Below are positions 9,209-40,003 of a DNA stretch of 45,717 nucleotides, in pieces. The notes under the pieces are model-generated. The model did no database searches. It was not told the DNA's origin and was given only the letters and a program-made list of their open reading frames with translations. Source of the DNA: Myxococcaceae bacterium. Lineage in GTDB: Bacteria > Myxococcota > Myxococcia > Myxococcales > Myxococcaceae. A program made the translations under genes and the position numbers. The stretch is from NCBI GenBank assembly GCA_019694575.1, contig JAIBBR010000026.1:1-45717 (forward strand). Direction: 5' to 3'. Positions within the stretch are counted from its first letter, which is position 1. Each line of letters opens with the position of its first letter.

Positions 9209-9211
9209 GCT

Positions 9212-9961
9212 TTAGCTTCCCGGCTTCACTTCAAGCGTCGCCATGGCCCTGCCCACACCCACCAGCGGTGCTGCTTTCGCCTGAAGAGGGCTCATTCCTG
9301 CGCGACGTGCTTCGGCCACCTCGCGCTCCAATTGCGCGCGCATGGTTTCTACCTTGAGCGGCTCTTTCGAGAGGAACGCGTGCAACGCCATTGAGCCCGG
9401 CGTCACTTGAAACCCTGGCGTCAGACGGGCTTCGGGGCCAGGAGCAACTCGCGCGCTCTCGGGCGAACCTAAGGGCCACACGAGGTTGATGTCACCCGAC
9501 GCTTCTACCGCCATGACCAAAGCAAAGGTTTGGTCGGCAGAGGTAACGGCAAGCACCACTTTTTCGCCCGGCCGCGCTGATGAAACCGCCGTGCCGTCGG
9601 GAGCGCGAAGCACACGAACCGAGGCGCCACCCTTCAACCGGGTGACGTCGGCCTTGGGGTGAGGCAACGCGATGTAAATGAGCAGTGCCACCGCAGCTGC
9701 AAGCGCCGGAGCAAAAACAAAAGTACGACGTCGCCACTTCGGCGCGGAGGGCAGACTTTCCACCGCTGCGTGAGACGTCTTCAACTTCGCGAAGACCTGC
9801 TCAAACGGCGCGTCACGCCGGGCTTGGTTTCGTGCTTCGACGAATTGGGCAAGCCGGTCACGGCACTGGAAACAGTCGCGCGAATGGGCGAGCGCCGCCG
9901 CATCGGTCGCGAGGCCCGCGGCCAGCTCATCGAGCACGAGCTTAGAAAGATGCTCAGCCAT
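9212..9961 (-). CDS. Membrane anti-sigma factor with HX3CX2C zinc motif
   Basis: The 249-residue protein has a cytoplasmic N-terminus with H26, C30 and C33 (AHSRDCFQC), matching the HX3CX2C zinc-binding anti-sigma (ZAS) pattern. A basic RRR precedes one membrane helix at about 80-99. The outer part, about 100-249, holds a beta domain (PGEKVVLAVTSADQTFALV) that resembles the DUF4384-type sensors next to caspase genes, followed by a helical stretch near 225. It should hold the neighbouring ECF sigma factor at the membrane and release it on an outside signal. The ATG overlaps the last eight bases of the sigma gene, with AAGGTGA just upstream. It is followed three bases later by the caspase-like gene. 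Confidence 0.8.
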   Translation of the reverse strand: MAEHLSKLVLDELAAGLATDAAALAHSRDCFQCRDRLAQFVEARNQARRDAPFEQVFAKLKTSHAAVESLPSAPKWRRRTFVFAPALAAAVALLIYIALPHPKADVTRLKGGASVRVLRAPDGTAVSSARPGEKVVLAVTSADQTFALVMAVEASGDINLVWPLGSPESARVAPGPEARLTPGFQVTPGSMALHAFLSKEPLKVETMRAQLEREVAEARRAGMSPLQAKAAPLVGVGRAMATLEVKPGS

Positions 9962-10532
9962 GGCTCACCTTCTTGCCCGGGGGCTCAGCCAGCGCCAGCG
10001 CCCGCTCACGCACTTCATTCAATTCGCGGCCAATTGTTTTGCGCGACAGCTTGAGCACGTCGGCAATTTCGTCTTGGGTGAGCTCGTCGATGAAATAGAG
10101 CGTCGCGATGTGCAGCTCGCGCTCAGACAAATGCTTCGAGAGCACGACGAGAAATTGCGACGCTTCGGCCGCACCGTGGTCTGCCGTGCCCGTATCGAGC
10201 GTTGACGGCTCGCGCAGCCTTCGCGCGCGCAACAGATTGAGGCACACGTTGGTCGTCACCCGGTAGATGTATGTCATGGGGTGGGCGTCACCCCGAAACT
10301 GAGAGCCGGAGTTTATCATTCGCTCGAAGACTTCTTGCACCGCGTCCCAAGCGTCGGCGTCTCGCCCCAAAATTGCCACGGCGCGCCGGTGCACGGCAGG
10401 TGCGAATGTCTCGTAGAGGTCACGAAGTTCATGAGGGCTTAGCCCGTTTGCCGCGCTCAAAACGCTGACTCCGTCTTTAGACACATGAGCATCGGCCGGT
10501 GGGAACCCGCGGCACGCTATATCAACTGGCAC
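9954..10532 (-). CDS. ECF-family RNA polymerase sigma factor
   Basis: This is an ECF (group 4) sigma factor with only regions 2 and 4. Region 2 runs from LRDLYETFAPAVHRRAVAIL through DADAWDAVQEVFERM and TYIYRVTTNVCLNLLRARR. Region 4 has the helix-turn-helix LTQDEIADVLKLSRKTIGRELNEVR. The listed GTG at 10532 has no ribosome site. A TTG at 10460 preceded by GGAG at eight bases fits family length better and would start at LSAANGLSP, giving about 168 residues. The start is therefore uncertain and 10460 is my preferred alternative. The 3' end overlaps the anti-sigma gene. The promoter it recognises could not be identified. Confidence 0.88.
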   Translation of the reverse strand: MPVDIACRGFPPADAHVSKDGVSVLSAANGLSPHELRDLYETFAPAVHRRAVAILGRDADAWDAVQEVFERMINSGSQFRGDAHPMTYIYRVTTNVCLNLLRARRLREPSTLDTGTADHGAAEASQFLVVLSKHLSERELHIATLYFIDELTQDEIADVLKLSRKTIGRELNEVRERALALAEPPGKKVSHG

Positions 10533-14302: not shown

Positions 14303-15550
14303 GTGAAAGCCACCTTCTTCTTCTTTGCTCTCACTGTTCTGCTCGCCTTTGCGTGTGGGCCGCGCGCGCTCGAAGACGGTGGCGTGCTGGTCGATGACGA
14401 CGCCGGTTTCGATGCGGGGCGGCTCTTTCCCGATGCAGGCCCGCTGGACGCTGGCTTCACCACGGTAGCGATTGCCGACTGGTGCCGCTTGCAGAGCGAA
14501 GCGCAATGCCTGCGCGCCGTGCGCTGCACCCGGCTCGACAGCGCGGCGATGAAGGCGTGCGTGCTGCGCGCCGAGCTCGAATGCGATTCGGCAAGCCTCG
14601 TTTCGAGCGTGGAACATGGCCGGCAAACTTTCGACAACGTGCGCGCGGCGGCCTGTCTCAACGCTTACGCGTCGGGGGCATGCCAAGGCGTGCCTGAACG
14701 TTGCACTGACTTGTTTCACGGCACGGTGGCGCCCGACGCCGGCTGCGCGCTCGACGAAGAGTGCGACAAGGCGCAAGGCTTTTGCGACCCGTATTCGACG
14801 CAATGCCCGCGGCGCTGTCTGGGCTGGCTGAAGCCGTCAGAACCGTGCAGCGACTTTCGCACCCGGTGCAACCCGGCCACCGACACCTGCCAACTCAATG
14901 ACGCAGGGGCCAGCGTCTGCCGGCCGTACAAAATTGCCTTAGAAACGTGTCTGTCTTTTTCAGACTGCCGCGCTGACTTGCTGTGCGTGAATGCGGTGTG
15001 CGTTACCTACCGCGCCAGCGAGGGCCAAGCCTGCAGCGTAATGAACGGCTACCCATACTGCGACGACGCCACGTTCTGCCGGCAAGGCCCCGCGGTGAAT
15101 GGCGTTTTTCCTCCCGGTACCTGCGAGCGAAAGCCAGGGTTGGGCGGCGCCTGCCTGGGTTATTCGAGCTGCTTACCGGCCCTGCGCTGCTCGTCGGTTT
15201 TGGCCACCGGGGTGTGCCAGCCTTTGGGCAAGTTGGGTGAAACCTGTGGAGGTACGGGCACTTGCCAAGACGAATTGTATTGCGGCAGCGGCCGGTGCGC
15301 GCCCCTGCCCACCGACGGAGGCGATTGCACCGCGCAAGGCAGCAGCTACACCTGCGCCGCCGGCTATACCTGCGACTTCAGCGCACCTGGCGGCCACTAT
15401 GGGTGCAGCCGTTTGCGAGCAGTCGGAGAGTCCTGCCGCTATGCTTCTGACTGCCTGTCCAATGAGTGCGCGTATCAAGCCGGTGCCGACAGTGGCGCCG
15501 GGTATTTTTGTACGCTTCCCTGTTCGCACTCGGCCGATGGCGGGTTTTAG
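14303..15550 (+). CDS. Cys-rich lipoprotein, paralogue of the next gene
   Basis: The 415-residue predicted lipoprotein starts with GTG. A hydrophobic signal (ATFFFFALTVLLAFAC) ends in a lipobox whose Cys is near residue 18. An Asp/Gly-rich linker (DDDAGFDAG, FPDAGPLDAG) separates the anchor from the main domain. From about residue 55 on it has dozens of evenly spaced Cys, mostly as short modules of the form C..(D/S)..C...L.C....C. This resembles Dickkopf-like or EB-type disulphide knots seen in myxobacterial surface proteins. Six bases separate it from the next gene, so the pair is one operon. Function unknown; a role on the cell surface is inferred. Confidence 0.75.
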   Translation: MKATFFFFALTVLLAFACGPRALEDGGVLVDDDAGFDAGRLFPDAGPLDAGFTTVAIADWCRLQSEAQCLRAVRCTRLDSAAMKACVLRAELECDSASLVSSVEHGRQTFDNVRAAACLNAYASGACQGVPERCTDLFHGTVAPDAGCALDEECDKAQGFCDPYSTQCPRRCLGWLKPSEPCSDFRTRCNPATDTCQLNDAGASVCRPYKIALETCLSFSDCRADLLCVNAVCVTYRASEGQACSVMNGYPYCDDATFCRQGPAVNGVFPPGTCERKPGLGGACLGYSSCLPALRCSSVLATGVCQPLGKLGETCGGTGTCQDELYCGSGRCAPLPTDGGDCTAQGSSYTCAAGYTCDFSAPGGHYGCSRLRAVGESCRYASDCLSNECAYQAGADSGAGYFCTLPCSHSADGGF

Positions 15551-15556
15551 ACGTCG

Positions 15557-16948
15557 ATGCGCGCTGGCACTTTTTGCAAATTCTCGGTTTTACCGTGGCG
15601 TGGCAGCGCCGCGCTTGGGTTGTGCCTGCTCTCGGGCTGCATGGGCGCCTCGAATTTTTTCGCTTTTGACGCGGGTGATTTCACCGACGGCGCTGTTTCG
15701 TTGCCTGACAGCGGGGTGCTCGACGGCGGCACCGCCACGCTGCCCATCGACATTGCGTGCGAGGTGCTCAACGCCCAGCGCTGCACCCGGTGGACCCGCT
15801 GCGGCGTGGTAGAAAACAACCAGAATGCGTACCGTGCGTGCCTCGCCTTTCTCAACAGCACCTGGTGCGGGCCCACCCGGTGGACTCCCCGGGCTCAAGC
15901 CTCGCCCGCCACCCTGAGCTATGACCCGGTGAAGGGCCAGCAATGCGCCGAAGCGCTGCGCACCCAGGCCTGCAGCCAGTGGGCGTTGGAACCTGCGCCT
16001 TGCACCGCGGGCCAAATGCTGCGCCCCAACGCGACGCTAGGCCGCGCCTGTTTCGGAGGCCCGTACAACGAGTGCGCTGAAGGTGTGTGCCGAGGAGCGA
16101 CCTGCCCCCGAAGTTGCGCGCTGCCAGGTACCGCGGGCCAAGTGTGCAACCGCATCACCGATTGCGCTTCGGGCCTGTATTGTTTGTTCAGCGCCAACGG
16201 TGTCGGCCAATGCAAAGCGTACGGCGCGATGAACCAGGCGTGTGATGTCGACCGTCGCTGCGCTGAAAGCCTCACCTGCCTCGATGGAACGTGCCAACCA
16301 TTGCCGCTCTCAGGCCAGCGCTGTCTCAACGGCCTGTGCGACGCGTTTGCGTACTGCGTGTCAGACGTCGACGGCGGCACTTGTGTCAACAAGAAGGCCG
16401 TCAACGCGTTGTGCAGCGACGACAGCCAATGCGCGACCGACCTGCTGTGTGACGGCTTGAGCCAGACCTGCCAACCGCAGCGCGTCAACATGTTGGGCGC
16501 GAGTTGCTCCTTGGAGCAAACCTGCCGGGTCGGCCCGGCCTGCATCGGCGCCACTTTGAGCAAAGCGGGCACCTGCCGCGCGTATCTGGGGCTCAACGAA
16601 GCGTGTCTGCGAAGCCAAGAGTGCACCAACGACTTGGCCTGCGTCAGCGCTGACGGCGGGCCCGAGCGGCAATGCGCCCCACGCGCGCAAGAGACTGATG
16701 TCTGCTTGAGCAACCGCGACTGTGGAGCGCTCGCCACCTGCCTGCAGGGCGAGTGCACCGCGCTGCCACTGCCGGGCCAAGCTTGTAGCAATACCCGCGC
16801 CTGTTTGTGGGGGCCGTGCGTCAGCGTCAACGACGGCGGCTTCGTTTGCGTCGAGCGGTTGGGCCCCGGCGCCAACTGTGTTCGCGACGCCGATTGCAGC
16901 TCGGAGCGCTGCTTCAACGGGCGCTGTTTGGCTGCCTGCGCGCCGTAA
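15557..16948 (+). CDS. Cys-rich lipoprotein, paralogue of the previous gene
   Basis: The 463-residue predicted lipoprotein has a long basic signal peptide ending in LCLLSGC, a lipobox with the modified Cys near residue 28. A short DAG/DGG-rich linker (FDAGDFTDGA, LDGGTATL) follows, then a domain with conserved early Cys (CEVLNAQRCTRWTRCG) matching the order in the upstream paralogue (CRLQSEAQCLRAVRC). The second half is a string of Cys modules such as CDVDRRCAESLTCLDGTC and CSDDSQCATDLLC, each about 20 residues. About 100 bases of non-coding DNA follow before the GH13 fusion gene. The tandem pair probably arose by duplication. Confidence 0.75.
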   Translation: MRAGTFCKFSVLPWRGSAALGLCLLSGCMGASNFFAFDAGDFTDGAVSLPDSGVLDGGTATLPIDIACEVLNAQRCTRWTRCGVVENNQNAYRACLAFLNSTWCGPTRWTPRAQASPATLSYDPVKGQQCAEALRTQACSQWALEPAPCTAGQMLRPNATLGRACFGGPYNECAEGVCRGATCPRSCALPGTAGQVCNRITDCASGLYCLFSANGVGQCKAYGAMNQACDVDRRCAESLTCLDGTCQPLPLSGQRCLNGLCDAFAYCVSDVDGGTCVNKKAVNALCSDDSQCATDLLCDGLSQTCQPQRVNMLGASCSLEQTCRVGPACIGATLSKAGTCRAYLGLNEACLRSQECTNDLACVSADGGPERQCAPRAQETDVCLSNRDCGALATCLQGECTALPLPGQACSNTRACLWGPCVSVNDGGFVCVERLGPGANCVRDADCSSERCFNGRCLAACAP

Positions 16949-17052: not shown

Positions 17053-20000
17053 ATGAGTAAAATTAACCGCGACAAGGCGTCTTCATTTGAGCCGGCAGCT
17101 CCTGAAACCGCGCGCGCGTTACGCAGGGCTGTGGCCGGCGCGGCGACGGTGAAGACCCTTTCGCTCAAACCGACGCACAAGCCCTGGCAGCCTGCTACGG
17201 CGAGCGTCGACCATGGCGCTGCTGAAAAACCGGCGCTGAGCGAAACACCTCTCTCGCGCGAGACGCTCAAAGCATTCGTCACCGACGTGTTGGGACCCGA
17301 AGTGGCCACCGAGCGCTTGCAGCGGCTCGAAGCGTTGCGCTCTTCTCTGGGCGCCTCGAGCACTGTGGTTCCGCTCCCCATAGTCGTGAGCACCGAGCAA
17401 GGTTCGTTCACCGTGCCCTTGTTTCGCGTACGGGGCGAAAAAGACGAGCGCTTCTTCGACGACTCGGGCCGCACCTACGACAGCTTCGCGCAGTGGAAGA
17501 GCGAAAACGTGCTGCCCGCGGGAAAAATGACGTACCCGGCAAATGGCGCGTTGAGCGTCGACGCCGCGGGGCAGCCGCGCACTGAAAGCAGCAACACCCC
17601 GCTCACCGTCGATACTTGGCTCGAGCGGGCGCGCGACATTGGCGACACCGTGGCCTTGGTGGGCGGGTTGGTGGTGGGCGCCGCGGCGATTATTGGCACC
17701 GGTGGCGCGGCGACGCCCGTGGTGGCAGCGGCGGCGGCCACCTTGGCGGGTTACGGCGCCGGGCGAGGCGCTTCGACGTTGATTGACCGACAGGTGCACA
17801 ATGAATCGATGTCGCTCGCCAATTCTGAAGCGCGCAGCGCGTGGCTGGGCTTCGCCGCGGGCACCGCTGGCCTGGGCGCACTGGGAGCGGCCGCCAAAGT
17901 CGCTTCGAGCGTGGCGCGCACGGGGGTGGCCGCAAGCCACGTGAATGCGACGCGGGCGGCACAAGGCATGGTGGTGGCACAGGCCACAGGCGACGCGTCG
18001 CTCGTCAACGCCGGCCACGAGCTGTGGAAACACCGAGACGAAGTTGGCGCGCGCGACGTGCTCGAGCTCGCAGCCCAAGCCGCCCTCTGGGGTGGCTTCG
18101 CAGCGCGCGCCGGTGGACCGAAAAAAATGTACTCGGTGCGCGGTTACCGAGAAAACCTGCTCAACGTTCGCCCAGAGCAAGGCACTCCCGTCAACCTCGA
18201 GCGCCAAGCCGCTTTCAACAAAGCCGCTGCGACGCTGCGCACCCAGCTCGCCGACGCGCAAGGCAAGTACGTTTCTCCGCTCAAGCCTGGCTACGACGCC
18301 AAAGCCGAAGAGGCTGCTATCTCTGCCGCGCTCAAGGGCGAAAAAAACCACTGGTCAGCGCTGCATGGCTTGTCGACGCCCGCGCTCTTCGCCCGCGCGC
18401 AAAAAGTACAAGCCCGCATCAACCCCGGTGATGCCGCGCTCGCCAGCCGCAACACGGTTGAGCTGTACGACGCCATCGCCCGCGGAGTGGTTGAACAGTC
18501 GGCCCTCGCCCGTTCGCTGCAGTCGCGCCTGCCGCCACGGCTCAAAGATTTGTACTGGAACTACGCCGACCGCATGGGCACTCCGAACGATGCGACCGCG
18601 GGCAGCTTCAATGACTTTCAACCCGCGCTCGAGCACTTGGGCACCCAACGGGGTGCGTCACACCTGTGGTCGAAAGACCTGTGGAAACGCGCCGGCCAGC
18701 CGGGTTTTTTCAAAGAATTAAAACACACGCTCACTGGCCGCAGCCCGCTTGAAGGCGCGCACATGCCCGGCGTGGCGTTCGCTCCCGTGTACGACAGCCC
18801 AATGCTCGACGTGGGCTACGACGCCAAGAGCTACCAAGTGCGGCCCAGCTTGGGCGGCGAAGCGGGCTTCAAGAAAACGGTGGAGCAGCTCTACCAACCG
18901 CGCCGCTTGGACCAGGCGGTGAACGCAGTCAATGGCCGCGACACCGAAGCGCCGCTGTTGATGCTCGACTTCTTGGGCGGCCACGTGTCGGAGCAGCACG
19001 CGCAATTTCAAGCCATGCTCAGCGGCGACAAAGAGGCGCGCAAGTACTTCAACGTGCTGCCTCCGAAAACAAAAGTGGTGGGGTACGAGAACACCGACGG
19101 GCCACGGGTGCTCTTGCAGCCCGAGGGCATGGGCACCATGAGCGCCTGGTTGATTTTTGGCCACGCCACCCATTCAAACTTTCGCGTCGACTACATTCCC
19201 GTGCGGGACGCGGCCGAAGCGGCGAAGGTGTCGAGCGCTTCAGTGGTGAAGTTGTCGCAAGTGCAAAAGCAGTTGGCGCCGTTCAAAAAAGAGAAAGGCA
19301 CCAGCGACCTCGAAGCACTGCGGCAATGGCGCATGCACGAGAGCTGGGACACGCGCTACCAGTACGTCGAAGTCGATGGCGCGTTGAAAGAAATTGTTCC
19401 CACCTACCACTGGTTTTACGACTTTCAGCCGTCGCTCAACCACCGCTCGACCGAAGTGCAGCGCATGATGTACGGCTTTCTGACTGACGGTGTGAATAAA
19501 GGTGCGAGCGTCTTTCGCGCCGACGCGGCGCCGCACTGGGGTTTTCAGCTCGCCGAAGCGGGCCAGAAAATCGACTTGTCGAAGCTCGATTCACACCTGG
19601 CGCTGCAAGAGAATTACAAATTTTTTCTCATGCACGTGTCACCCAAGGCGATGTTGATACCCGAGGTGGCGTCGGCGATTAAAGAAGCGTCGTCTTATTA
19701 CGGCGAGCGCATCGAAGGCCCGAGCGGGCGCACCACCACCACCATGGCCGATGCCTTGCTCGACTTCGACAGCCACCGTGCCTTTTGGGAGTCAATGCTC
19801 GACGAGCGCAAAGGCCCGGTGCTGAAGCATGAGCGCGAGCTCAACGCGTTGAAGTTGAACCCGCGTGAGAAACAGCTCTTACGCTTCATGGACCACCACG
19901 ACGAAATCATCACCAGCGAGTACACCAACCGCGCCAAGACCGAGCAGCGCCTGTGGGACGCGGGGCTTTTGCCCTTCAACGGGCGCGGAGCGGGTGGCCG

Positions 20001-20640
20001 CAAGACAGACGCGCTGCAAGGCAACCCCAAGCGCATCGCCCTGTCTGAAATGCTGAAGCGGGCGTTCCCCGGAGCGACGTTCAGCTACTACGGCGCGTTG
20101 GAAGGCGCGACCAATGACCCCGCCTTCATGTTGCAAATGAAAACACTGCGCCAAAAAATCGGCGAACAGTTCGGCCGGCCAGTGAGTGATGAAGCCGCGC
20201 TCGACTCGCGTGATTTGGCACGTGGCAATGTGAGCCGCGACAAGTTGAAGCAAGCGCGCGAGAGTGGGTACGAGCCCTTTGCGCTGGTGCGGGCGCTCAA
20301 CAAGCTGGCCCAATCGCGGCCGTCGATTCGCAGCGACGCGGTGGCTGAAATTCACAACGCTGATGAGAGCGTGCTTACTTTGGCGCGCACGTCTGTGGCC
20401 GGTGACGATTCGCCGCACCTGTGGGTGATGAACCTGTCGGGCAAGACGAAGAAGGTGAAGCTCTCGCTCTCGGAATTAAAGCGCAAGCTGGGGTGGAAGT
20501 CGGTGAGCGGAAAATCGCTCGAAGATATTTTGTACCGTGAAATCACCGGCAGCGCGCGCCGGCCAAAGCTGGCGGTGAAGGGCGACGAGGTGGAGCTCAC
20601 CGTCGAGCCGTACGACTACATGATTCTGGAGCGGCGCTGA
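17053..20640 (+). CDS. DUF4781-like module fused to a GH13-type glycoside hydrolase domain
   Basis: This 1195-residue protein has three parts. Residues about 110-350 contain a module with MTYP, DTW and DR..H motifs and Gly/Ala-rich hydrophobic helices (about 197-240); from memory it resembles DUF4781. Residues about 560-1090 look like a GH13 (alpha-amylase family) barrel. Region I is MLDFLGGH at 637-644, region II VFRADAAPHW with the nucleophile Asp D824, region III IPEV with acid E871, and region IV MDHHDE with D950. Residues about 1115-1195 match the all-beta C-terminal domain of GH13 enzymes (LWVMNLSGKTKKV, ending YDYMILERR). All three catalytic acids are present, so activity on an alpha-glucan or sucrose/trehalose-type sugar is plausible. 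There is no ordinary signal peptide. Confidence 0.75.
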   Translation: MSKINRDKASSFEPAAPETARALRRAVAGAATVKTLSLKPTHKPWQPATASVDHGAAEKPALSETPLSRETLKAFVTDVLGPEVATERLQRLEALRSSLGASSTVVPLPIVVSTEQGSFTVPLFRVRGEKDERFFDDSGRTYDSFAQWKSENVLPAGKMTYPANGALSVDAAGQPRTESSNTPLTVDTWLERARDIGDTVALVGGLVVGAAAIIGTGGAATPVVAAAAATLAGYGAGRGASTLIDRQVHNESMSLANSEARSAWLGFAAGTAGLGALGAAAKVASSVARTGVAASHVNATRAAQGMVVAQATGDASLVNAGHELWKHRDEVGARDVLELAAQAALWGGFAARAGGPKKMYSVRGYRENLLNVRPEQGTPVNLERQAAFNKAAATLRTQLADAQGKYVSPLKPGYDAKAEEAAISAALKGEKNHWSALHGLSTPALFARAQKVQARINPGDAALASRNTVELYDAIARGVVEQSALARSLQSRLPPRLKDLYWNYADRMGTPNDATAGSFNDFQPALEHLGTQRGASHLWSKDLWKRAGQPGFFKELKHTLTGRSPLEGAHMPGVAFAPVYDSPMLDVGYDAKSYQVRPSLGGEAGFKKTVEQLYQPRRLDQAVNAVNGRDTEAPLLMLDFLGGHVSEQHAQFQAMLSGDKEARKYFNVLPPKTKVVGYENTDGPRVLLQPEGMGTMSAWLIFGHATHSNFRVDYIPVRDAAEAAKVSSASVVKLSQVQKQLAPFKKEKGTSDLEALRQWRMHESWDTRYQYVEVDGALKEIVPTYHWFYDFQPSLNHRSTEVQRMMYGFLTDGVNKGASVFRADAAPHWGFQLAEAGQKIDLSKLDSHLALQENYKFFLMHVSPKAMLIPEVASAIKEASSYYGERIEGPSGRTTTTMADALLDFDSHRAFWESMLDERKGPVLKHERELNALKLNPREKQLLRFMDHHDEIITSEYTNRAKTEQRLWDAGLLPFNGRGAGGRKTDALQGNPKRIALSEMLKRAFPGATFSYYGALEGATNDPAFMLQMKTLRQKIGEQFGRPVSDEAALDSRDLARGNVSRDKLKQARESGYEPFALVRALNKLAQSRPSIRSDAVAEIHNADESVLTLARTSVAGDDSPHLWVMNLSGKTKKVKLSLSELKRKLGWKSVSGKSLEDILYREITGSARRPKLAVKGDEVELTVEPYDYMILERR

Positions 20641-20736: not shown

Positions 20737-21606
20737 ATGGCGGGAATGCGATTACCGGGCTCGAAGCAAAGGCGAGCCACTCCAAAGACGCAGACCCGCC
20801 CGAGCGTTGTCACCACCCAGCAAACGCGCTTGGCGACCCCGGCCAAGGTCTTCACCGTTAAGACAACGAATTACCCAACAGGCACTTTCACGCCCAAGGC
20901 GAAGAGCTCAGCGCTGCCGCGGCCATTTCAAGTGCCAAAGAGCCGCGCCCTCGAAAGCGCCCCTTCGTCGCTCGACTACGTGGTTCGGTTGCCCGGTGCG
21001 CCGTTCGAGGTACAGTCGGTCGCGAATCTTCACGGTGTAGAACACACGTTGAACTTTGAGCCAGCTTTCGTCGTTGACGGCGGCATCAAGACACTCACCG
21101 AAGCGATACCCAAAGCCATTCCCCAAAAGCCTTCGGTTACCCGATACCGAGCTGTCGAAATTGACACACGAACCTTGAAGCCTGGTGATGACAAACACAC
21201 CCAAGTGCTCAAGCAAACAGTCACTCAATTGCGACAACAAGGCGCAGAAGTACCCGAACCCAAGCCAGGCGAAGGGCTCTATGAGTATTTTCGCCGCAAA
21301 GACGCGCCCAAAATTTGGACCGAGGACAACTACCCAGTGCGGCCGGTGCTGGTCTTCCGGCACTTCGACGAATTGCTCAAAAACCCCGCCGGGAAAAACG
21401 CGGCCTTCGACTTCATGGACCTCACCCACCCCCGAATTCCCAGTCGAATACTGAAAATGTCGAGCGAAGAACGGGCGCTGCTCAATCTGCAGGGGAGCCC
21501 CTTTGTCAGTACGGTCTTTGCGGTAGAGAAAGAGCTGACATCAGCAGCGGCCGAAAACATCAGGCGGGCCTTGGGAAACACTTGGGTCTACCGCTTCACG
21601 CCGTAG
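20737..21606 (+). CDS. Hypothetical 289-residue protein downstream of the GH13 fusion
   Basis: The start is firm: GAGGAG lies seven bases before the ATG. The first ~80 residues are basic and rich in Pro, Thr and Ser (SKQRRATPKTQTRPSVV), without a signal peptide, and look disordered. A folded region from about 80 to 289 follows. It includes LDYVVRLPGAPFEVQSV, YRAVEIDTRTLKPGDDKHTQ, GEGLYEYFRRKDAP, VRPVLVFRHFDELLKNPAGK and the end GNTWVYRFTP. I do not recognise a family. It lies 96 bases after the GH13 fusion gene on the same strand and may be a partner, immunity-like or substrate-handling protein; nothing in the sequence decides between these. The GC content seems slightly lower than that of its neighbours. 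Confidence 0.65.
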   Translation: MAGMRLPGSKQRRATPKTQTRPSVVTTQQTRLATPAKVFTVKTTNYPTGTFTPKAKSSALPRPFQVPKSRALESAPSSLDYVVRLPGAPFEVQSVANLHGVEHTLNFEPAFVVDGGIKTLTEAIPKAIPQKPSVTRYRAVEIDTRTLKPGDDKHTQVLKQTVTQLRQQGAEVPEPKPGEGLYEYFRRKDAPKIWTEDNYPVRPVLVFRHFDELLKNPAGKNAAFDFMDLTHPRIPSRILKMSSEERALLNLQGSPFVSTVFAVEKELTSAAAENIRRALGNTWVYRFTP

Positions 21607-22903: not shown

Positions 22904-23511
22904 TGCCGCGCTCCCTTCAGCACCGAGCGCATTTGGCACCCCACGCACGCGGTGCAGTGGGGGTCTTCACCCGCGTCGGGGCCGGCCTTCACCACGTCAA
23001 TGACTTCACCGCACGCGCGCAGCATGTCGAAACCGCCGACTGAAGTGGTGCCGGGAGCCGTGATGCCGCCTTCACCGGTGGGCACGGCGACGCCGCCATC
23101 GAGCGGGTTGGCTGGGCAATCACCTCCCGCCGCGTCAGTTTGGCTCTTGCTGAGCAGCGACATCACCAGGGTCTCTTCGACCACCAACTGCGAGCACGCT
23201 TCGCATTGTTGAAAGAAACGCGTCGCGCTCTGCACCGACGTCAGCACTTGCCCGTCAAATGTCGCGGGCCGCGAAAAACCATTCAACGTCACCCAGGCTT
23301 CGTCGGTGCCTTTGTTGTGCGTCAGCGTGGCTTCAAAATCGAAGGGCGCCCTCGAGAGCTCGGCCAGCTCGCACGTCACTTCGTAGGGTTCGGCGTGAAA
23401 GGCCACTTTGCCCATTTCTTCGTCGCCCGGCAGCTGGGTGGGGTTGCACGCCACCACGGCCACCGCCGAAAAGAGAACGACGCCACTGCCTTTGCACCAA
23501 CGCACGGTCAT
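22900..23511 (-). CDS. Predicted lipoprotein between the TPR giant and queC
   Basis: The 203-residue protein has a signal peptide (residues about 1-21) ending in the lipobox-like AVAVVAC, with the modified Cys at 22. The mature part includes a beta-rich region ([21 protein letters not shown]), a CEAC pair, a linker rich in Gly and Asp, and a C-terminal CTACVGC motif. It resembles metal or disulphide sites but no known family is recognised. The ATG overlaps the stop of the giant TPR gene (ATGA) and its own stop overlaps the queC start (GTGA), so the three are translationally coupled. It probably localises to the envelope, so a physical link to the TPR protein is possible. Confidence 0.7.
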
Positions 23512-26500
23512 TTTTTACGCAGCCGCTCGAGCGCGCGCTTGGCAATCGCCACGAAGGCTTCGCTCTGGCCAAGAACTTGAACTGCGTTGACAGCGGTACC
23601 GGCCTTCTGACGGGCCTGAGAATCGAGAAATGAAATCACCCGGCAAGCCGCCAATGACGCAGGGTAAGCATCGAACGCCGTCACCGCGCTCGCCGCCAAG
23701 TGCGCCGCCACGCCGGTTTCTGCGTAGCGCCGACCGTCTTCACCCATGGCCAAGGCCAAAGCGGCCAGGTACGTCAGCTCTTGTGCGCCGAACACCGTCA
23801 ACGCGCCGACACCCAGCACCAAAACCCTGCTGCCACCTTGCCACGCCTCAATGCCACCTTTGGCGTCGAGCAGCACGCTGACTTTCTGCGCACCCAAACC
23901 GGCCAGTGCGTCGCTCAGCGCGCCGTGCAACCGCGGCATCGTCTGCTCGTCGAGCTTCACCAAACCTTCAGGCAACGCAGGGAACTTCAGGCCCGGCGTC
24001 AACTTGAGGTGGTTCAGCTTCACTTGCGGAGCAGGCAAGTCGCTGGCCGTCAACGCCGCGCCAAAGCCGTCGGCCAACACCGCGTCGACCGTGCGTTGGC
24101 ACAAACGCAACGCTTCGGCAAAAAGGGTCCACCCGTCGGCGTCGTGGGGCTGCTCGGCGAGTAAGTCGAGCCACACCCGGCACGCCAGCTCGGCGCCTTG
24201 GGCGGTGGGGGCCAAGCGCTCGGCCAAGAGACGGAGCGAGGTGCCGGTGAGCGCTCCCTCGTCGAGCATGCGGGTGCCCAAGCGCACCGCGAAAGGCACC
24301 AAGTCTGACTTGAGGTAACCGGTGAGAATGACGTCGCGCTCGCTGTGGGTTTCGGCCACCCGCTCACGCAAGGTGAGCGATTCTCCGAGCAGACCCAGTT
24401 CTTCGGCCAAACGCGCGCGGCGGCGAATCAGCTCGGGCAGCTCGGGCAGCTCGGCCAAAACACGGTACGCATCGCGCAACCGGCCCAGCGCTTCGTAGGC
24501 ATCGGCACGCGCCAGGCGAAACGGCTCAATCGCCTTGACGCCCGCGAGCGCTTCGAGACGTTCAACCCAGCCCACAAAACGTTCCGGGGCTTGGCCTTGC
24601 GTCAATTCAGCCAGCGCGCGTACCGCGGCAACCGACTGCGCGTCGTCGATGAGTGTTTTTTCGTAGAGCTCTACCGCGGCTTGCGGCTTGTTCAGCGAAT
24701 GGCGCAAAAGCTCGGCGCGCTCCAACTGCAGCGCGGCGCGGGCCTTGGCGTCGGTCTCGTCAGCCACCACTTGGCCCAACGTGGCAATCGCTTCTTCGTA
24801 GCGTTGCGCGGCTTGCTGCAACTGCGCCAGCGACACCCAAATGCCTTGGCGGCGAGCGGGCAAAGCGTGCGCGGCGGCCAACCACAACGCTTCGCGCGCC
24901 TGCTCGGCGAGAGACTCGGCGTAAGGCAACAGCTGCTCCAACACCCAGGCTTCGGGCGCGTCGACCGCAGCCTGCGCCACCGCACCCAAGCTGCCCAGGC
25001 GCACCAGCGCTTCTAGCGCACCCGCTTGGTGACGCGCGAAGAACAGCTCGCGCCACAACGCTTCGGCCTCACGCGGAGCGCCGCGCTTTTCGAGCAGCCC
25101 GGCCAACTTCATCAAGCCGGCTTCGTCGTTACGTTCAGTGAGCCGCGACACCAACTGCGAAGCGCTCTTCGGCTCGGCGGTGGCCTTGGCCCACAGCGCT
25201 TCGTCGACCCAGGCCTCTTCATTGGCCGCCCGGGCCAGCGCAAGCGCTTCGTCAATGGCGCCGGCGTCCATCGCGGGCTTGAAGCCAAGCTGTGCCGCCT
25301 TGCCCGCCGCTCCGAAGCGCAGGTACCACTGCGCCGCTTCACGCGCGGCCAGCGCCTTGGGCATCTCGTCGAGCAAACGCGTCAGCAACTCGCGGGCCTC
25401 CTCGACTTGGCCCGCTTCTTCCCATGCTTGCACCGCTTCCAACATCACGCTGGCTTTACGTTGGCCTTTGACGCCGAACGCCGCTTGCACCAACGCGCCT
25501 GCCGCGGCGGCCGGCTCGCCCAGCTGGCGGTGGAGCGCAGCTGACAGCAAGAACGCTTCTTCGCTGGCCCGGGCCGCCAAGCTCTGTTGCACGGTCTGCA
25601 CTGCGGCGCGCAGGTCGCCCGTCTTCTGCAAGCTCGCAGCAGCACGGAGCAGCAAGTCAGCCTTGGCTTGGCCGTCGAAAAGGTCAGCGCGCGCAATGAG
25701 GGCTGAAGCCAATTCACCAGGGTCTTCTGACTTGGTGGCGATGCGCTCTAACGCTTCGAGCGCCGCCGCGTAGCCGCTCGAGCTCGCCCCACCCGCGGCC
25801 ACCGCCTGGTACGCCAACCGCGCCGCCGCGTCGTTGCCGCGCTTCTCATGCAACGCCGCCATTTCGAGCCGCGCTTCGGCCTTGCCCTGAGGGTCAACCA
25901 ACACCTCGACCCATTGTTTGAGCACCTCGAGCAACGCCAATTCGTCACCTTTGCGGCGGTGCTCGTCGACCACCGCCTTGAGCGCGATGGGGTTTTTCGG
26001 GTCTAACACCGCCGCTTCACGCCGCAGCTCTTGGGCCTTGTCGTCGTCGCCCAGCTCGCTCTGCGCCACGTCGGCGGCTTGGAGCAACGCTTCGGCACCT
26101 CGCGCGGCACCCGCGGCGTGGGCATAACGCTCGTGCAGCCCGAGCAATTCTCCAAACCGGCCCAGCGCGGCGAAGGCGGCTTGCCCCTTGGCGTACAGCG
26201 CTTCATCACCGGGGCGCAGCTTGAGCAGCGGCACCAACGCGTCGACGGCGCGTTGCGGCTCGTCGAAGAGGCCGACGGCGCGCCGGTACAACGCTTCAGC
26301 TTCTTGCCCGCTCGAGCGCTGCGCCAACCGCACGGTGGTAGAATACAGCCCGTCGGTGTCTTGAAGGCGCGCGTACGCTTCAGACAACAGCGAGAGCGCC
26401 TCGCGGCCCACCGGCCCCTCGGCGTCGAGCCCGTACGCCGCTTCGAACGAATCAACCGCGTCGCGGTACGCTGAAGACTCCAACGCCGCGTGGCCAAGCC

Positions 26501-33053: not shown

Positions 33054-33079
33054 GAACGCCTGTGGCGCACCGTAGCACT

Positions 33080-33091
33080 GCACTCAAGTGC
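33080..33091. promoter_or_regulatory. Palindrome GCACTCAAGTGC upstream of the TPR giant
   Basis: Arms GCACT and AGTGC flank a CA centre. The site lies 26 bases before the ATG at 33053, in the 5' leader or promoter of the operon, and between two divergent genes. It may be an operator or a leader hairpin. Confidence 0.25.
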
Positions 33092-35152: not shown

Positions 35153-38100
35153 TCAACGCTGCGTTTTTTTGGTGACTCGCGCCATATTGAAGCGCGAGGC
35201 GTCGACATTGGGGAAGAACTCTCTTAGCCGCTCGAGTTCGCCCGTGGTGAATTGCTGCTTCGTATTAAATTTATTTTGCAGGCCCTTCAGCAGGTTGCGC
35301 TCGTCGATATTGATTGAGTTTCCAGCCCGTGCGGCATCAATCAAACTCTTAAACTGAGCATTTATGGCTTCCACCTCAGCGCCAGTGAAGCCAGTTACTT
35401 TGACCCCGTTTTTCTTCGGCGGAACCACGGCAGCACCACGACCCAGTGGCCGGCGCGTTTCTGTTCCTCCACCCGCCCGGATGATGCGGTCAGGCCCATC
35501 GGTGAAAATCGGTAAGTCATCTTGAGGCGCGCGCGCTGGCACCTTGGCTTCTTTTGCAGGCGTCACTGGCTCCGTGCGGGCAGGAGGCATGACCGGCTCA
35601 CCCTGGGTAGGCACCTGATAGGCCGGGCGGGTACCTCGTGGGCGCAATGAACTGGCGCTTGCCGATCGCACGATGTTCTGTGACAGGTCGGCCAAGTTGC
35701 GAGAATGCACCACGTCATTGAGCAGCGATATCTGCGGGTTCTCGAGCATGCCCTCGCGCGCGAAAATATCTTGCAGCTCTTTCAACATCTGTTGGTGCAT
35801 TTGCTGTTGCGGCGTCTGAGGCGTCTCAGCGCGGAACTGCGTCAGCATTTTCTCAACGTGTGCACGCTGCTCACCATTAAAGAGCGCCGTCACGCCGCGC
35901 GGGTGATTTCCGGGATTTTTTGACACGGCGGTAGCGAGCACTTCCTGCAACCCTTCAGGTAAGCCAGCCGAAATGCCGCGCTTGTTGGCCAGCTTTTGCG
36001 CCTTGCCCATGCGGTTCGAGCTGATCGTCGCGACCCACGCTTGCTCTTCAGCATTGAGCTTCTCTTTGGCTTGCACCTTGGCTCTCAGCGTGCGGATACG
36101 CTCGTACCATGGGCTTCGCTTGGCTCCCGCCGGCGCATTGGGTTTAGGAGCGGCCGCGGCTTCCACGCGTTGCATAGCGCCTAACAACTGCTGCATGTGC
36201 TCGGGCGACACCATTTGACTGGCCAGCACTGCCGGTTGCTCAGCCGACGCGTGGTACATGCCGGTGGTCAACGTACGCAGCAACCCGATATCGGTTTCAT
36301 GAAACTGCACATCGCCCTGTTGCAGGCGGTACAACAACCCCTTCAACGCCTGATGCCCTTCGTGGTTACTTACGAACCCTGAATATTCAGGAGGAGCGCT
36401 GCCATCTGCTTCTGCCGTCACGCGGGCAGAAACGGCTTCCCATAAAATTTGCCGATCCGCTGGGTCAGGGAAGACCTCGTTTACCTTCGGCAGCGCTTCG
36501 CCATTGCGGCCCAACTCGTGGGCTTTGGTGAGCAAAGCTCCCATGATGTTGCTGCGCGGGGCATGCACCAACGGCTCTTGGAGGTCGGTGTAATCTTGAG
36601 CGCGAGACAGTTTGTAAACGAGGTCGACGTCGTTCGTGCTCAGCTCCTCGTTACCGCGAATGCGCCGGTCGACATCTTCGAGGTGCTGACGCAGTTCAGG
36701 CGGCAGCGTCTCATTGCCTGGCCGTGTCAGCGTCTCTTTTATCTTGCTGAGCACCGCCGCACGCTCAGGCTTGTTGAGCACCGTGTGTGCTTTGGCCGGC
36801 TTTCCCGCATTGGCATAGGCATGCGCCGCGCCAATGCTGTTGTCGAGCGTCAACGGAGGCGGCTTCAACATCGCCAACCGTTTGGGTGCCGACAGATCTT
36901 TGTTCAAAATACGCCAATCTTTTTCGAAGAGCGGCAGTTCGTTCCGCAATTTGTGGAGCAGCGATTTGAGATCCGCCAGCTGCTGCGCATTGACCGAATT
37001 GGGCATGGCATCGCGAAACAACATGCGCCGATTTTGTGCTTCGGCCGTAGCAACAATGCCTTCGATGTGGGCGATGTACTGCTTGGTCTCTTTTTTCTCA
37101 AACTGCGTGAACGCCGTCTTGGGTGAGCCAGTCTGCAAAACCTCAGCGTGCGCCGCCGCCGCCTTACGGGCCATCGCCTCGGGTATGCGCATCGACGCCA
37201 TGAACTGATGCCGTTGCAACATCGGGTCAAACATGCCGCGCACGCCACCCACCGCCACCATGCCGCCGAGCATGCCCAGGTTACCGAAGAACATCACCTT
37301 GTCCGACTCGGACATGTGGTCCCAGTCTTGGTACGCCATCACCCCATCTTCCACCGTGCCGGCTATCATTGCCGTTTGACCCGCGAACAGCATCGCGGCT
37401 CCGGCGGTGCGGCCCGCCATGTTGGTGCCTTTGTACAGAGGCTCCTTGAGAATTAACGACTTCATCGCGGGCTGCATCATCTTTAGGGCGGGCGCGCTGA
37501 GGCCGAACATGCCGAGGTAATACATTTGCCGCACTTCGGGGTCTGAAATGGCGGTGAGGCTTTGACCGTGACGATAGCGGTCGTGCGCCATGTACCCCCC
37601 CATGGCCCCTTGCTGCAGCGCCATGCCAACTTGCACGTTCATCATGCGCATCATCAGCAGGGCTAGCGCTTCACGCGACAACACGCCAGCCGCGACCGCG
37701 CCAAAACCGATGGGCATCGCCAAGCCCATCGCCAAACCGGCCGCGGTCATCGCATATTGGCCGTAATACATGGCGTACTCTTGCCAGGTGTCCATCGTCG
37801 CCGGAGCGTTCTTGGTCGCGATGAGCGGGTTGCCCTCTTTGTCGAGGTTGAGCTCGCCCCCCAACGGGTAAGTCATCAATGAATCAGGCGGCAGGGTGTT
37901 GTTTTCAAGGTAGTCGTCCCACGACCTGTATTCTTTGCCCAACGAGTCGACGAAAATGGCGTCTTTTCCATTTTCAACGCGAAAGACCGACATGGAGTAA
38001 CTGATGCCGTCGGCTTGATCGACCATCACCTTCAAGGGCGTCACTTCGAGAGACCTGATGCCTCCAAAACGTTGGTGCAGCTCATTGAGCTTTTTAATGC

Positions 38101-40003
38101 CTCCCTTGTACTCCGTGAGCACCTCTTCTTTGGTGAGGGCGATTGCTTCATCGGTCATTCCCGTGGCCGGGTCGAACCCAGCGGCTCTCAGAACACCGTC
38201 TTCAAAAGACTTGGGCTCCCATTGCTGGGCCTCCGTCTGGCCTGAAAAAACCTGATCAAGGTACTTGCCCTTATAAAGAGTGAGGGTGTTCGGCCGGCGG
38301 AACTCGATGGTGCGCTTGCTCTTGGCATCGGCCGCGTCGATAGAGAGCGACATCGACACGTTGTCGGCATGCCCGTTGAGAATGGCGTCAGCCTTAATGC
38401 GGCCCACCGCCCGCTTGGGGTCGAAATCGGTCTTCTCGAGAATGCCACCCAGGGTGTTTCCCTCGGCCGCGCGCATTTTCTCGGCCGCGACTTCGGGACC
38501 ACGACCGTAGAGCAAACCGGCCTTCTGCCCCAGCTTGTAAATCTCCATCGTTTTTTCAGCGACGGTTATTTCGACAGGCTTCGAAAAGTCGAGCGTCGGG
38601 ACAATGTCTTTCATCGACAAGGTCCACTTGCCCTTGGAATCAGTCGCTACCTCGTGGGTCTTCCCTCCGACAGACACCACCACCCAGCCTGGCTTCGAGG
38701 CCTTGCCACGAAAAACTGCCCCTTCCCCGTTGTTACCGTTGGTGACAATGGCTGGCCCACTGGCCTTGTCGACATTGGGGTCGCGGGCCACCGGCTCAAG
38801 CATGCCTTCTTCCGTCATGGTCAAATTGAAGGGCAGTGTCACCGCGGGGTCGGTTCGCGAGACCTGTATGTTCAACTCACCTTGGCTTAAGCCACCCAAC
38901 TTTTCCTTCGGCGTCATCAACAGCAGCGCTACTTCTGCATCGGGAAAACGACGCTTCAGCTCTTTAACCGCCGAGGCTTCAAGGTGACCCTGGTTGCCCT
39001 CAAACGAGAACGTGTTCTTGACGAACGTCCCGAAAAGGCCCGCCGCCTTGGCGTTTTTGTCTTCGGGCTTGAGCCGCGCCACCACCGCATCGGCGAGGTC
39101 CATTGTCGGCTTCAGGTAAGTAACCAGCCGGTCTAAGCCGCCGACATCGGTCTTGGGAAAGAGCGTGGCCGCGGTGCGCTTGGCAATTTCCGAAGGCTTC
39201 ACCGCGTCGAGATTGGCCTCGAACATTTTATCGCCCGAGGGAAGCTTCTCTAAAATCTCTTCAGCTGCGATGTCTGCGCCCGTCTGCAGGGCAGCCTTCC
39301 GCACATCACCTCCAAATTTTTGGCCGTAGAGCTCCAACAGCTTTTGAATCAGCAACAACTTTTCAGGGCCATGCTCGGTGTCCTTGGCGACTTTAGTTAT
39401 CGCCTCGGCCAACTCATGAGCACCCAGTTTCCGGCTCTCTTCGGCCATCTGGCTTGCCACGATTTGAAATTTCGCTGGGTCAGCAATTGGCGCTGCGGTT
39501 TCAGACACGGGTGCCGCAGGTTCGGTCTGAGATTCAGGCGCTCTGGGCATAGCTGCCTTGACCGGTTTGAAACTCACTGCTTGTTGCGCAGGAGCACCGT
39601 TCACCTGCGCCTGCGAGCCCGCCTTGGCCACCGCTTTATCGGGCCAACTGAGCTGGCGCCCTGGTTGCGGCACAGCCTCGCCGTCTTGAAGTGGTACAGC
39701 TCCCTTGTTCTTCATCAACGCCATCAACTGAGGGAGCGCCTCAGCTTGAGGCACCACCACATCTTCACGGGGAAAAATCAGGTCACCGAATCGGCGCTCT
39801 TCAGTAAAAAGCGTGGGGTTAAGAAACGCCAGCACCTCGAGGGGCACACCGGTGCGCTTGGCAATGCGGGTGAGCGAATTGCCCTCTTTCACCTGCACCA
39901 GAAACAAGCCGGGCTGCAGACTTTGTGGATCAACTTTGTGAAGTCGCAGGCGCTGGCGGTTACCGCTGATAGGCGTCGGGGCTGACTCAAGTCTGACCGG
40001 CAT
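35153..40003 (-). CDS. Large LysM protein with DUF4781-like module and helical repeat array
   Basis: The 1616-residue protein starts at ATG 40003, with GAGG eight bases upstream. A LysM domain spans about 35-78 (VQVKEGNSLTRIAKRTGVP, LAFLNPTLF), which usually binds peptidoglycan or chitin. Next come a helical region (about 180-350) and an Ig-like beta domain (about 440-520). Residues about 655-960 are the module shared with the GH13 fusion protein (SMSVFRV, FVDSLGKEYRSW, MTYPLGGELNLD, DTW, DRYRHG) plus Gly/Ala-rich helices. From about 985 to the end, six related helical units recur. No N-terminal signal peptide is present, so how it would reach the wall is unclear. Confidence 0.75.
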   Translation of the reverse strand: MPVRLESAPTPISGNRQRLRLHKVDPQSLQPGLFLVQVKEGNSLTRIAKRTGVPLEVLAFLNPTLFTEERRFGDLIFPREDVVVPQAEALPQLMALMKNKGAVPLQDGEAVPQPGRQLSWPDKAVAKAGSQAQVNGAPAQQAVSFKPVKAAMPRAPESQTEPAAPVSETAAPIADPAKFQIVASQMAEESRKLGAHELAEAITKVAKDTEHGPEKLLLIQKLLELYGQKFGGDVRKAALQTGADIAAEEILEKLPSGDKMFEANLDAVKPSEIAKRTAATLFPKTDVGGLDRLVTYLKPTMDLADAVVARLKPEDKNAKAAGLFGTFVKNTFSFEGNQGHLEASAVKELKRRFPDAEVALLLMTPKEKLGGLSQGELNIQVSRTDPAVTLPFNLTMTEEGMLEPVARDPNVDKASGPAIVTNGNNGEGAVFRGKASKPGWVVVSVGGKTHEVATDSKGKWTLSMKDIVPTLDFSKPVEITVAEKTMEIYKLGQKAGLLYGRGPEVAAEKMRAAEGNTLGGILEKTDFDPKRAVGRIKADAILNGHADNVSMSLSIDAADAKSKRTIEFRRPNTLTLYKGKYLDQVFSGQTEAQQWEPKSFEDGVLRAAGFDPATGMTDEAIALTKEEVLTEYKGGIKKLNELHQRFGGIRSLEVTPLKVMVDQADGISYSMSVFRVENGKDAIFVDSLGKEYRSWDDYLENNTLPPDSLMTYPLGGELNLDKEGNPLIATKNAPATMDTWQEYAMYYGQYAMTAAGLAMGLAMPIGFGAVAAGVLSREALALLMMRMMNVQVGMALQQGAMGGYMAHDRYRHGQSLTAISDPEVRQMYYLGMFGLSAPALKMMQPAMKSLILKEPLYKGTNMAGRTAGAAMLFAGQTAMIAGTVEDGVMAYQDWDHMSESDKVMFFGNLGMLGGMVAVGGVRGMFDPMLQRHQFMASMRIPEAMARKAAAAHAEVLQTGSPKTAFTQFEKKETKQYIAHIEGIVATAEAQNRRMLFRDAMPNSVNAQQLADLKSLLHKLRNELPLFEKDWRILNKDLSAPKRLAMLKPPPLTLDNSIGAAHAYANAGKPAKAHTVLNKPERAAVLSKIKETLTRPGNETLPPELRQHLEDVDRRIRGNEELSTNDVDLVYKLSRAQDYTDLQEPLVHAPRSNIMGALLTKAHELGRNGEALPKVNEVFPDPADRQILWEAVSARVTAEADGSAPPEYSGFVSNHEGHQALKGLLYRLQQGDVQFHETDIGLLRTLTTGMYHASAEQPAVLASQMVSPEHMQQLLGAMQRVEAAAAPKPNAPAGAKRSPWYERIRTLRAKVQAKEKLNAEEQAWVATISSNRMGKAQKLANKRGISAGLPEGLQEVLATAVSKNPGNHPRGVTALFNGEQRAHVEKMLTQFRAETPQTPQQQMHQQMLKELQDIFAREGMLENPQISLLNDVVHSRNLADLSQNIVRSASASSLRPRGTRPAYQVPTQGEPVMPPARTEPVTPAKEAKVPARAPQDDLPIFTDGPDRIIRAGGGTETRRPLGRGAAVVPPKKNGVKVTGFTGAEVEAINAQFKSLIDAARAGNSINIDERNLLKGLQNKFNTKQQFTTGELERLREFFPNVDASRFNMARVTKKTQR

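What the first reader, a model, noticed from the sequence alone, without database searches (positions are those of the whole stretch)
17053..20640. DUF4781-like module fused to a GH13-type catalytic domain
One 1195-residue chain carries a hydrophobic, non-enzymatic N-terminal module and a GH13-like barrel with all three catalytic acids (D824, E871, D950) and a C-terminal beta domain. GH13 enzymes are usually free soluble enzymes or joined to sugar-binding domains. A fusion to this kind of module, with no signal peptide, suggests an unusual delivery route or a role other than nutrition, such as an effector acting on a glucan. Region I is unusual (LDFLGGH instead of the D...NH pattern).
Basis: partly seen in the sequence, partly recalled or inferred. 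Interest (0 to 1): 0.65.

Follow-up and report, generated by a model that had tools for sequence, protein, structure and literature searches.

The report
DUF4781 effector-like protein with GH13 enzyme
A predatory-type soil bacterium (Myxococcaceae) encodes a starch/glycogen-cutting enzyme fused to a module that, in other bacteria, carries toxins and plant-effector-like enzymes and often sits in type III secretion gene clusters, so this enzyme is probably an injected weapon or feeding tool rather than an ordinary digestive enzyme.

Summary
Confirmed: 17053-20640 (+) encodes one 1195-aa protein with a DUF4781 module (residues 122-344, E 2e-36), a divergent GH13 domain (about 500-1195) that keeps every catalytic position (D639, H644, R822, D824, E871, H949, D950), and no signal peptide. 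Region I lacks only the usual Asn (N to G). New here: DUF4781 behaves as a polymorphic-toxin/effector module. The C-terminus changes from protein to protein: HopF2/AvrPphF ART, AvrB, Fic, HopBF1-like kinase, Endonuclease_NS nucleases, YwqJ deaminase. In alphaproteobacteria the gene lies in type III secretion clusters (9 of 11 loci with usable flanks; in seven it directly follows sctV or sctV-TPR), and nuclease versions are followed by YezG- or SUKH-type immunity genes. The window's genome has a second DUF4781 protein whose C-terminus is an archaeal-type glycogen debranching enzyme (E 7e-17). The genome has non-flagellar T3SS clusters and no detectable T6SS sheath. Best reading: an injected alpha-glucan-degrading effector. 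Not shown: secretion, activity, substrate. No T3SS gene lies near this copy, and the GH13 structure model was too poor to test pocket geometry.

The parts
17053..20640 (+). Whole gene, 1195 aa DUF4781-GH13 protein (P0001)
   Evidence: ORF and translation; coding composition
17053..17415 (+). N-terminal stretch (aa 1-121): S/T/P/A-rich start without signal peptide, then helical start of the module
   Evidence: Sequence, no hydrophobic window; first ~17 modelled residues (aa 45-61) of very low confidence
17416..18084 (+). DUF4781 (aa 122-344): small alpha/beta head, then helical bundle
   Evidence: PF16013 E=1.9e-36; model pLDDT 69.5 overall, 80-92 in the head; no confident PDB fold match
17635..17745 (+). 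Gly/Ala-rich hydrophobic hairpin-like segment inside DUF4781 (about aa 195-231)
   Evidence: Kyte-Doolittle peak 2.07 at 196; the region gives weak hits to haemolysin BL L1 in P0001 and three relatives
18544..20319 (+). GH13 barrel with insertions (about aa 498-1089)
   Evidence: PF00128, hhalign E=4.8e-15, alignments
18967..18984 (+). GH13 region I DFLGGH: D639 and H644 kept, Asn replaced by Gly
   Evidence: Alignments A4 and A9
19516..19524 (+). GH13 region II: R822 and nucleophile D824
   Evidence: Alignments A4 and A9
19663..19665 (+). GH13 region III: acid/base E871
   Evidence: Alignments A4 and A9
19897..19902 (+). GH13 region IV: H949, D950
   Evidence: Alignments A4 and A9
20320..20637 (+). 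C-terminal beta domain (about aa 1090-1195)
   Evidence: Aligned with GH13 C domain; strands in the low-confidence model
20737..21606 (+). Downstream orphan gene (289 aa, P0007), candidate immunity protein, partner or second effector; role unknown
   Evidence: No Pfam or PDB match; absent from 192 other Myxococcota genomes
35153..40003 (-). Second DUF4781 protein in the window (1616 aa, P0002), weak LysM at N-terminus, no recognised C-terminal domain
   Evidence: PF16013 E=8e-11; no PDB hit

Best explanation
The protein is a modular effector. The N-terminal region plus DUF4781 is the export/translocation part, most likely used by a type III secretion apparatus, and the C-terminal GH13 domain is the payload, a retaining alpha-glucan-active hydrolase or transglycosylase that would attack glycogen or related alpha-glucans of a prey or host cell. 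Together with the DUF4781-debranching-enzyme protein in the same genome it could take glycogen apart at both alpha-1,4 and alpha-1,6 linkages. Shown: domain make-up, intact GH13 catalytic residues, payload swapping behind DUF4781, T3SS gene linkage of DUF4781 in alphaproteobacteria, presence of non-flagellar T3SS genes and no detectable T6SS sheath in this genome. Inferred: secretion of this copy, use of T3SS, substrate, target cell.
For: DUF4781 proteins carry different C-terminal effector or toxin domains: Fic, AvrPphF-ORF-2 (3.8e-9), AvrB_AvrC (2.7e-4) in Myxococcota; HopBF1 (7e-6, below NCBIfam's cut-off) in Ensifer; Endonuclea_NS_2 in Bosea, Paracoccus, Bradyrhizobium, Methylobacterium; YwqJ deaminase in a Burkholderiales MAG. 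Linkage: the gene follows sctV or sctV-TPR in Bosea, four Bradyrhizobium and two Methylobacteriaceae, and lies within 10 kb of sct genes in Ensifer and Paracoccus sanguinis. A published HopBF1+DUF4781 gene sits in B. cenocepacia T3SS clusters 1-4 (PMC12580581). The same genome has a DUF4781 protein ending in an archaeal-type glycogen debranching enzyme (PDB 7vma, 7.4e-17). Own genome: two non-flagellar T3SS-like clusters plus a flagellar one, no VipB. Catalytic residues intact. No signal peptide seen. Precedents: injected Legionella amylase LamA degrades host glycogen (PMC8262857); Chlamydia glycogen enzymes, GlgX among them, carry T3S signals (PMC4829429).
Against: No T3SS gene found within this window or near the other Myxococcota DUF4781 loci searched, so linkage is by homology only. 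SctV is common in the phylum (113 of 195 genomes over cut-off) while DUF4781 is rare (6 of 195 over cut-off), so co-occurrence within the phylum says little. The Myxococcus-type T3SS is described as lacking secretin, needle and translocon (PMC12075869), so T3 export there is itself unproven. P. contaminans and Ottowia DUF4781 genes have no T3SS gene found nearby. The GH13 domain is very divergent (20-29% identity), has an altered region I and a poor structure model.
Confidence: 0.55

Rival explanations
1. Same effector logic, but the route in myxobacteria is not T3SS: the DUF4781 module with its hydrophobic hairpin inserts into or crosses membranes itself, or the protein is released by the Kil/Tad predation apparatus, vesicles or lysis.
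For: No T3SS linkage of the myxobacterial copies; hydrophobic hairpin-like segment with weak similarity to haemolysin BL L1; the Myxococcus T3SS* lacks needle and translocon (PMC12075869).
Against: In alphaproteobacteria the module is in T3SS clusters; the Hbl similarity is weak and in Gly/Ala-rich sequence.
Confidence: 0.2
2. An interbacterial polymorphic toxin: the GH13 payload acts on prey or competitor bacteria and P0007 downstream is its immunity protein.
For: DUF4781-nuclease genes are followed by YezG-like (2.3e-8) or SUKH genes, classic immunity families; P0007 lies 96 bp downstream, same strand; Myxococcaceae are predators (own knowledge).
Against: P0007 matches no immunity family and is an orphan; HopF2-, AvrB- and HopBF1-like payloads in the family point to eukaryotic targets; bacteria do not as a rule need glycogen to live.
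Confidence: 0.12
3. An intracellular, non-secreted enzyme for the cell's own glycogen or trehalose metabolism, with DUF4781 as a membrane or scaffold anchor.
For: No signal peptide; closest GH13 relatives by sequence are TreS-type enzymes that are metabolic proteins.
Against: DUF4781 carries toxins and effectors elsewhere; the gene is not conserved in relatives, unlike a housekeeping enzyme; no obvious alpha-glucan metabolic neighbours in the window.
Confidence: 0.1
4. A decayed GH13 (pseudo-enzyme) used only for binding sugar.
For: N to G in region I, loss of the usual acidic residue after YYG, many insertions.
Against: All three acids plus R822, H644 and H949 are retained at 20-29% identity, which is unlikely without selection for catalysis.
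Confidence: 0.08

Closest known systems
DUF4781 (PF16013) proteins of T3SS clusters, e.g. Burkholderia cenocepacia WP_321175898 with HopBF1 (PMC12580581) and Bosea/Bradyrhizobium DUF4781-nucleases
   Same: DUF4781 module upstream of an exchangeable C-terminal enzyme
   Different: GH13 payload, not in a T3SS cluster, and a short N-terminal region (DUF4781 starts near residue 120 instead of 400-650)
Legionella LamA (T4SS-injected amylase) and Chlamydia GlgX/GlgP/MalQ (T3S-competent glycogen enzymes)
   Same: Alpha-glucan enzymes sent out of the bacterium
   Different: LamA uses Dot/Icm; chlamydial enzymes are free-standing; neither is known to have a DUF4781 module
GH13 trehalose synthase/alpha-glucosidase-type enzymes (TIGR02456, PF00128)
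   Same: Barrel sequence motifs and complete catalytic residues
   Different: Only 20-29% identity, region I Asn to Gly, insertions, and fusion to DUF4781; below the TreS equivalog cut-off (38.8 versus 678 bits)
Polymorphic toxin systems (variable C-terminal toxins with immunity genes)
   Same: Constant N-terminal or central module, variable C-terminal enzyme; immunity genes beside the nuclease versions
   Different: Linked to T3SS; for this copy no recognised immunity gene

Membership tests
GH13 (alpha-amylase superfamily) | Significant similarity to PF00128 or a GH13 profile | tested here: met
   37-40 bits over a 22-bit cut-off; hhalign E=4.8e-15
GH13 (alpha-amylase superfamily) | Catalytic Asp nucleophile, Glu acid/base, Asp stabiliser, plus Arg and two His | tested here: met
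   R822, D824, E871, D950 and H644 invariant in both alignments; H949 invariant and matched by all but one sequence
GH13 (alpha-amylase superfamily) | (beta/alpha)8 barrel with clustered active site | tested here: inconclusive
   Model pLDDT 42.7; Foldseek hits are GH13 with E to 5e-9 but TM 0.2-0.3, and the model's input alignment contained GH13 proteins
GH13 (alpha-amylase superfamily) | Activity on alpha-glucosides | not testable with these tools
   Needs enzyme assay
TreS (maltose alpha-D-glucosyltransferase, TIGR02456) | Score over equivalog cut-off | tested here: not met
   38.8 versus 678 bits
DUF4781 (PF16013) | Score over gathering cut-off | tested here: met
   126 bits versus 27.9
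Type III secretion effector | Homologous module in T3SS-linked effectors | tested here: met
   9 of 11 non-myxobacterial loci with usable flanks have sct genes within about 10 kb
Type III secretion effector | This gene linked to T3SS genes | tested here: not met
   No sct gene found in the 45.7 kb window
Type III secretion effector | T3SS-dependent export | not testable with these tools
   Needs secretion assay
Polymorphic toxin | Same module with different C-terminal toxin domains | tested here: met
Polymorphic toxin | Adjacent immunity gene for this copy | tested here: inconclusive
   P0007 is adjacent but matches nothing; homologous nuclease loci do have YezG or SUKH genes

The most novel reading that the evidence does not exclude
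DUF4781 marks a previously unrecognised, type-III-secretion-linked polymorphic effector/toxin family that spans alpha- and betaproteobacteria and Myxococcota, includes nuclease-immunity pairs (implying antibacterial use of T3SS), and in this myxobacterium supplies a pair of injected glycogen-degrading enzymes (GH13 plus debranching enzyme) for predation, thus naming candidate cargo for the myxobacterial T3SS.
Probability: 0.35. Interest if true: 0.82.

Novelty: new variant of a known kind. Interest (0 to 1): 0.66.

Why it matters
It gives a domain of unknown function a testable role as the shared delivery module of exchangeable effectors, and it offers candidate cargo for the type-III-like apparatus that Myxococcus needs for prey lysis, for which the literature read here speaks only of potential effectors. 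If right, a predator may inject alpha-glucan-degrading enzymes, a strategy otherwise known from intracellular pathogens. The nuclease plus YezG/SUKH loci inside T3SS clusters would also suggest that some type III systems act against bacteria.

Tried and rejected
P0001 alone found no relative in 84,980 species genomes by peptide patterns; the ten-sequence DUF4781 alignment was too divergent for patterns; a five-sequence subset worked. GH13 relatives for the structure job had to come from viral contigs; only a handful exist and the model stayed poor. The DUF4781 model has no confident PDB match. T6SS delivery was considered and set aside because no VipB was found. Phage origin was considered and set aside: no DUF4781 match in phages. 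Kinship of P0002 to the LysM protein next to the Paracoccus T3SS locus was tested and not supported. I suspected an ART-like fold in P0007 by eye; searches gave nothing, so it is not claimed. T3SS co-occurrence across the phylum is uninformative because SctV is so common. Bradyrhizobium hereditatis (L045) carries a DUF4781 gene interrupted by stops; it was left as it is.

Full report
Observation. The named gene is real. The ORF 17053-20640 (+) translates to 1195 residues with codon-position GC typical of this genome's genes. Pfam finds DUF4781 at residues 122-344 (126 bits, E=1.9e-36) and Alpha-amylase PF00128 in two pieces (37 bits, E=3e-9; cut-off 22). NCBIfam and PDB sequence searches place the C-terminal half nearest to trehalose synthase and alpha-glucosidase type GH13 enzymes, but weakly (38.8 bits; PDB E=2e-5). 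A profile comparison of residues 480-1195 with four myxobacterial GH13 proteins gives 98.4% probability, E=4.8e-15 over 482 columns.

Catalytic residues. In two alignments, one with cellular GH13s and one with GH13s found on viral contigs, D824, E871 and D950 sit on the nucleophile, acid/base and stabiliser, and R822, H949, H644 and D639 are also kept. The usual acidic residue after YYG is also missing. A structure prediction of this part, with the shallow alignment that the rules allowed, was poor (mean pLDDT 42.7). Its Foldseek hits are nevertheless GH13 enzymes (E to 5e-9) with low TM-scores. This is consistent but does not test the pocket, and it is not independent because GH13 sequences were in the input alignment.

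The N-terminal module. DUF4781 is rare in the phylum: 6 of 195 Myxococcota genomes over the cut-off. Reading the other DUF4781 proteins was the turning point. Their C-termini differ completely: Fic (E=2e-11), AvrPphF-ORF-2/HopF2 (3.8e-9) and AvrB_AvrC (2.7e-4) in Myxococcota; HopBF1 in Ensifer (7e-6, below the NCBIfam cut-off); Endonuclea_NS_2 nucleases in Bosea, Paracoccus, Bradyrhizobium and Methylobacterium; a YwqJ-like deaminase in a Burkholderiales MAG. A published note reports HopBF1 plus DUF4781 in one protein of Burkholderia cenocepacia T3SS clusters 1-4 (PMC12580581). Only three papers in the library mention DUF4781 at all.

Genomic context elsewhere. In Bosea, four Bradyrhizobium species and two Methylobacteriaceae the DUF4781 gene comes directly after sctV, in Bosea and Bradyrhizobium with a small TPR gene between, inside a T3SS cluster. 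In Ensifer and Paracoccus sanguinis sct genes lie within 10 kb. P. contaminans (no T3SS annotated on that plasmid) and Ottowia are exceptions: 9 of 11 loci with usable flanks are linked. The nuclease versions are followed by short genes: YezG-like in Bradyrhizobium (2.3e-8; a sub-threshold hit in Bosea) and SUKH in Paracoccus, duplicated there. YezG-like and SUKH proteins are known immunity families for such nucleases (own knowledge; EsaD-EsaG in PMC9616950 is a nuclease toxin with its antitoxin).

The same genome. A second DUF4781 protein, 1311 aa on contig C186 (L030:5648-9583 -), ends in an archaeal-type glycogen debranching enzyme (PDB 7vma, E=7.4e-17; the GW-D-S and WP-D motifs of that enzyme are kept). 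A third, P0002, is in the window at 35153-40003 (-) with a weak LysM and no recognised payload. Thus both glycoside-hydrolase payloads among the DUF4781 proteins read here are in this one genome, and together they could open alpha-1,4 and alpha-1,6 linkages. Their DUF4781 modules are only 26% identical, so this is not a recent duplication. The genome has three SctV/FlhA-type export gates: a full sct cluster (L055), a compact second one (L056) and a flagellar one (L057). It has no detectable VipB.

Mechanism. I think most likely that P0001 is an injected effector whose N-terminal half serves export and whose GH13 half degrades alpha-glucan in a prey or host cell (confidence 0.55). Domain content, intact catalytic residues, payload swapping and T3SS linkage of the family are shown. 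Export of this copy, the route in myxobacteria, substrate and target are inferred. The weak points are the lack of T3SS genes found near any Myxococcota copy, the wide presence of SctV in the phylum, and the report that the Myxococcus T3SS* lacks secretin, needle and translocon yet is needed for prey lysis (PMC12075869). The hydrophobic stretch at about 195-231, weakly like haemolysin BL L1 in four proteins, could be a membrane hairpin; the module's predicted fold is a small alpha/beta head plus a helical bundle with no confident PDB match. Precedents for injected glycogen enzymes are Legionella LamA (PMC8262857) and T3S-competent Chlamydia GlgX, GlgP and MalQ (PMC4829429).

Novelty. Neither GH13 enzymes nor exported glycogen enzymes are new, and DUF4781 next to T3SS has been noted once. 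What I found no record of is DUF4781 as the common module of a wide, payload-swapping, T3SS-linked family, nuclease-immunity pairs among them, and an alpha-glucan-degrading pair of such proteins in a predator-type genome. I rate this a new variant of a known kind, interest 0.66.

Noticed in passing
L030:5648-9583 (-), contig C186 of the same genome: DUF4781 protein with a C-terminal archaeal-type glycogen debranching enzyme (PDB 7vma, E=7e-17); a radical-SAM-like ORF lies 94 bp upstream on the same strand.
   Followed up: partly
window 35153-40003 (-): 1616-aa protein with weak N-terminal LysM and a DUF4781 module; C-terminal half has no recognisable domain.
   Followed up: partly
window 20737-21606 (+): Orphan 289-aa gene with a T/P/K-rich, disordered-looking start, directly downstream of the DUF4781-GH13 gene and found in no other Myxococcota genome searched.
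   Followed up: partly
L032, L039-L044 (Bosea, Bradyrhizobium, Methylobacterium): DUF4781-nuclease genes inside T3SS clusters followed by small genes, YezG-like in Bradyrhizobium, suggesting antibacterial type III effectors.
   Followed up: partly
L025:1423-4404 (-) and L026:158-3634 (+): Two DUF4781 proteins of one MAG (JAUHYN01, '3_bin.68') end in HopF2-like (AvrPphF-ORF-2) and AvrB-like domains known from plant-pathogen effectors.
   Followed up: no
window 7664-10532 (-): Caspase-like peptidase (C14) next to an anti-sigma-like protein and an ECF sigma factor; could be a stress or cell-death regulon.
   Followed up: no
window 23508-33083 (-): Giant 3191-aa TPR-repeat protein.
   Followed up: no
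window 14303-16948 (+): Two adjacent ORFs with weak Dickkopf_N/EB-like (Cys-rich) motifs just upstream of the finding.
   Followed up: no
L056 (G000:C119): A second, compact non-flagellar T3SS-like cluster (sctJ, R, S, U/T region, V), besides the larger sct cluster in L055.
   Followed up: partly
L024:5338-6873 (-): Protein with a HEFAH zinc-peptidase-like motif and a sub-threshold NolX hit (T3SS translocon-like) beside a DUF4781 gene.
   Followed up: no
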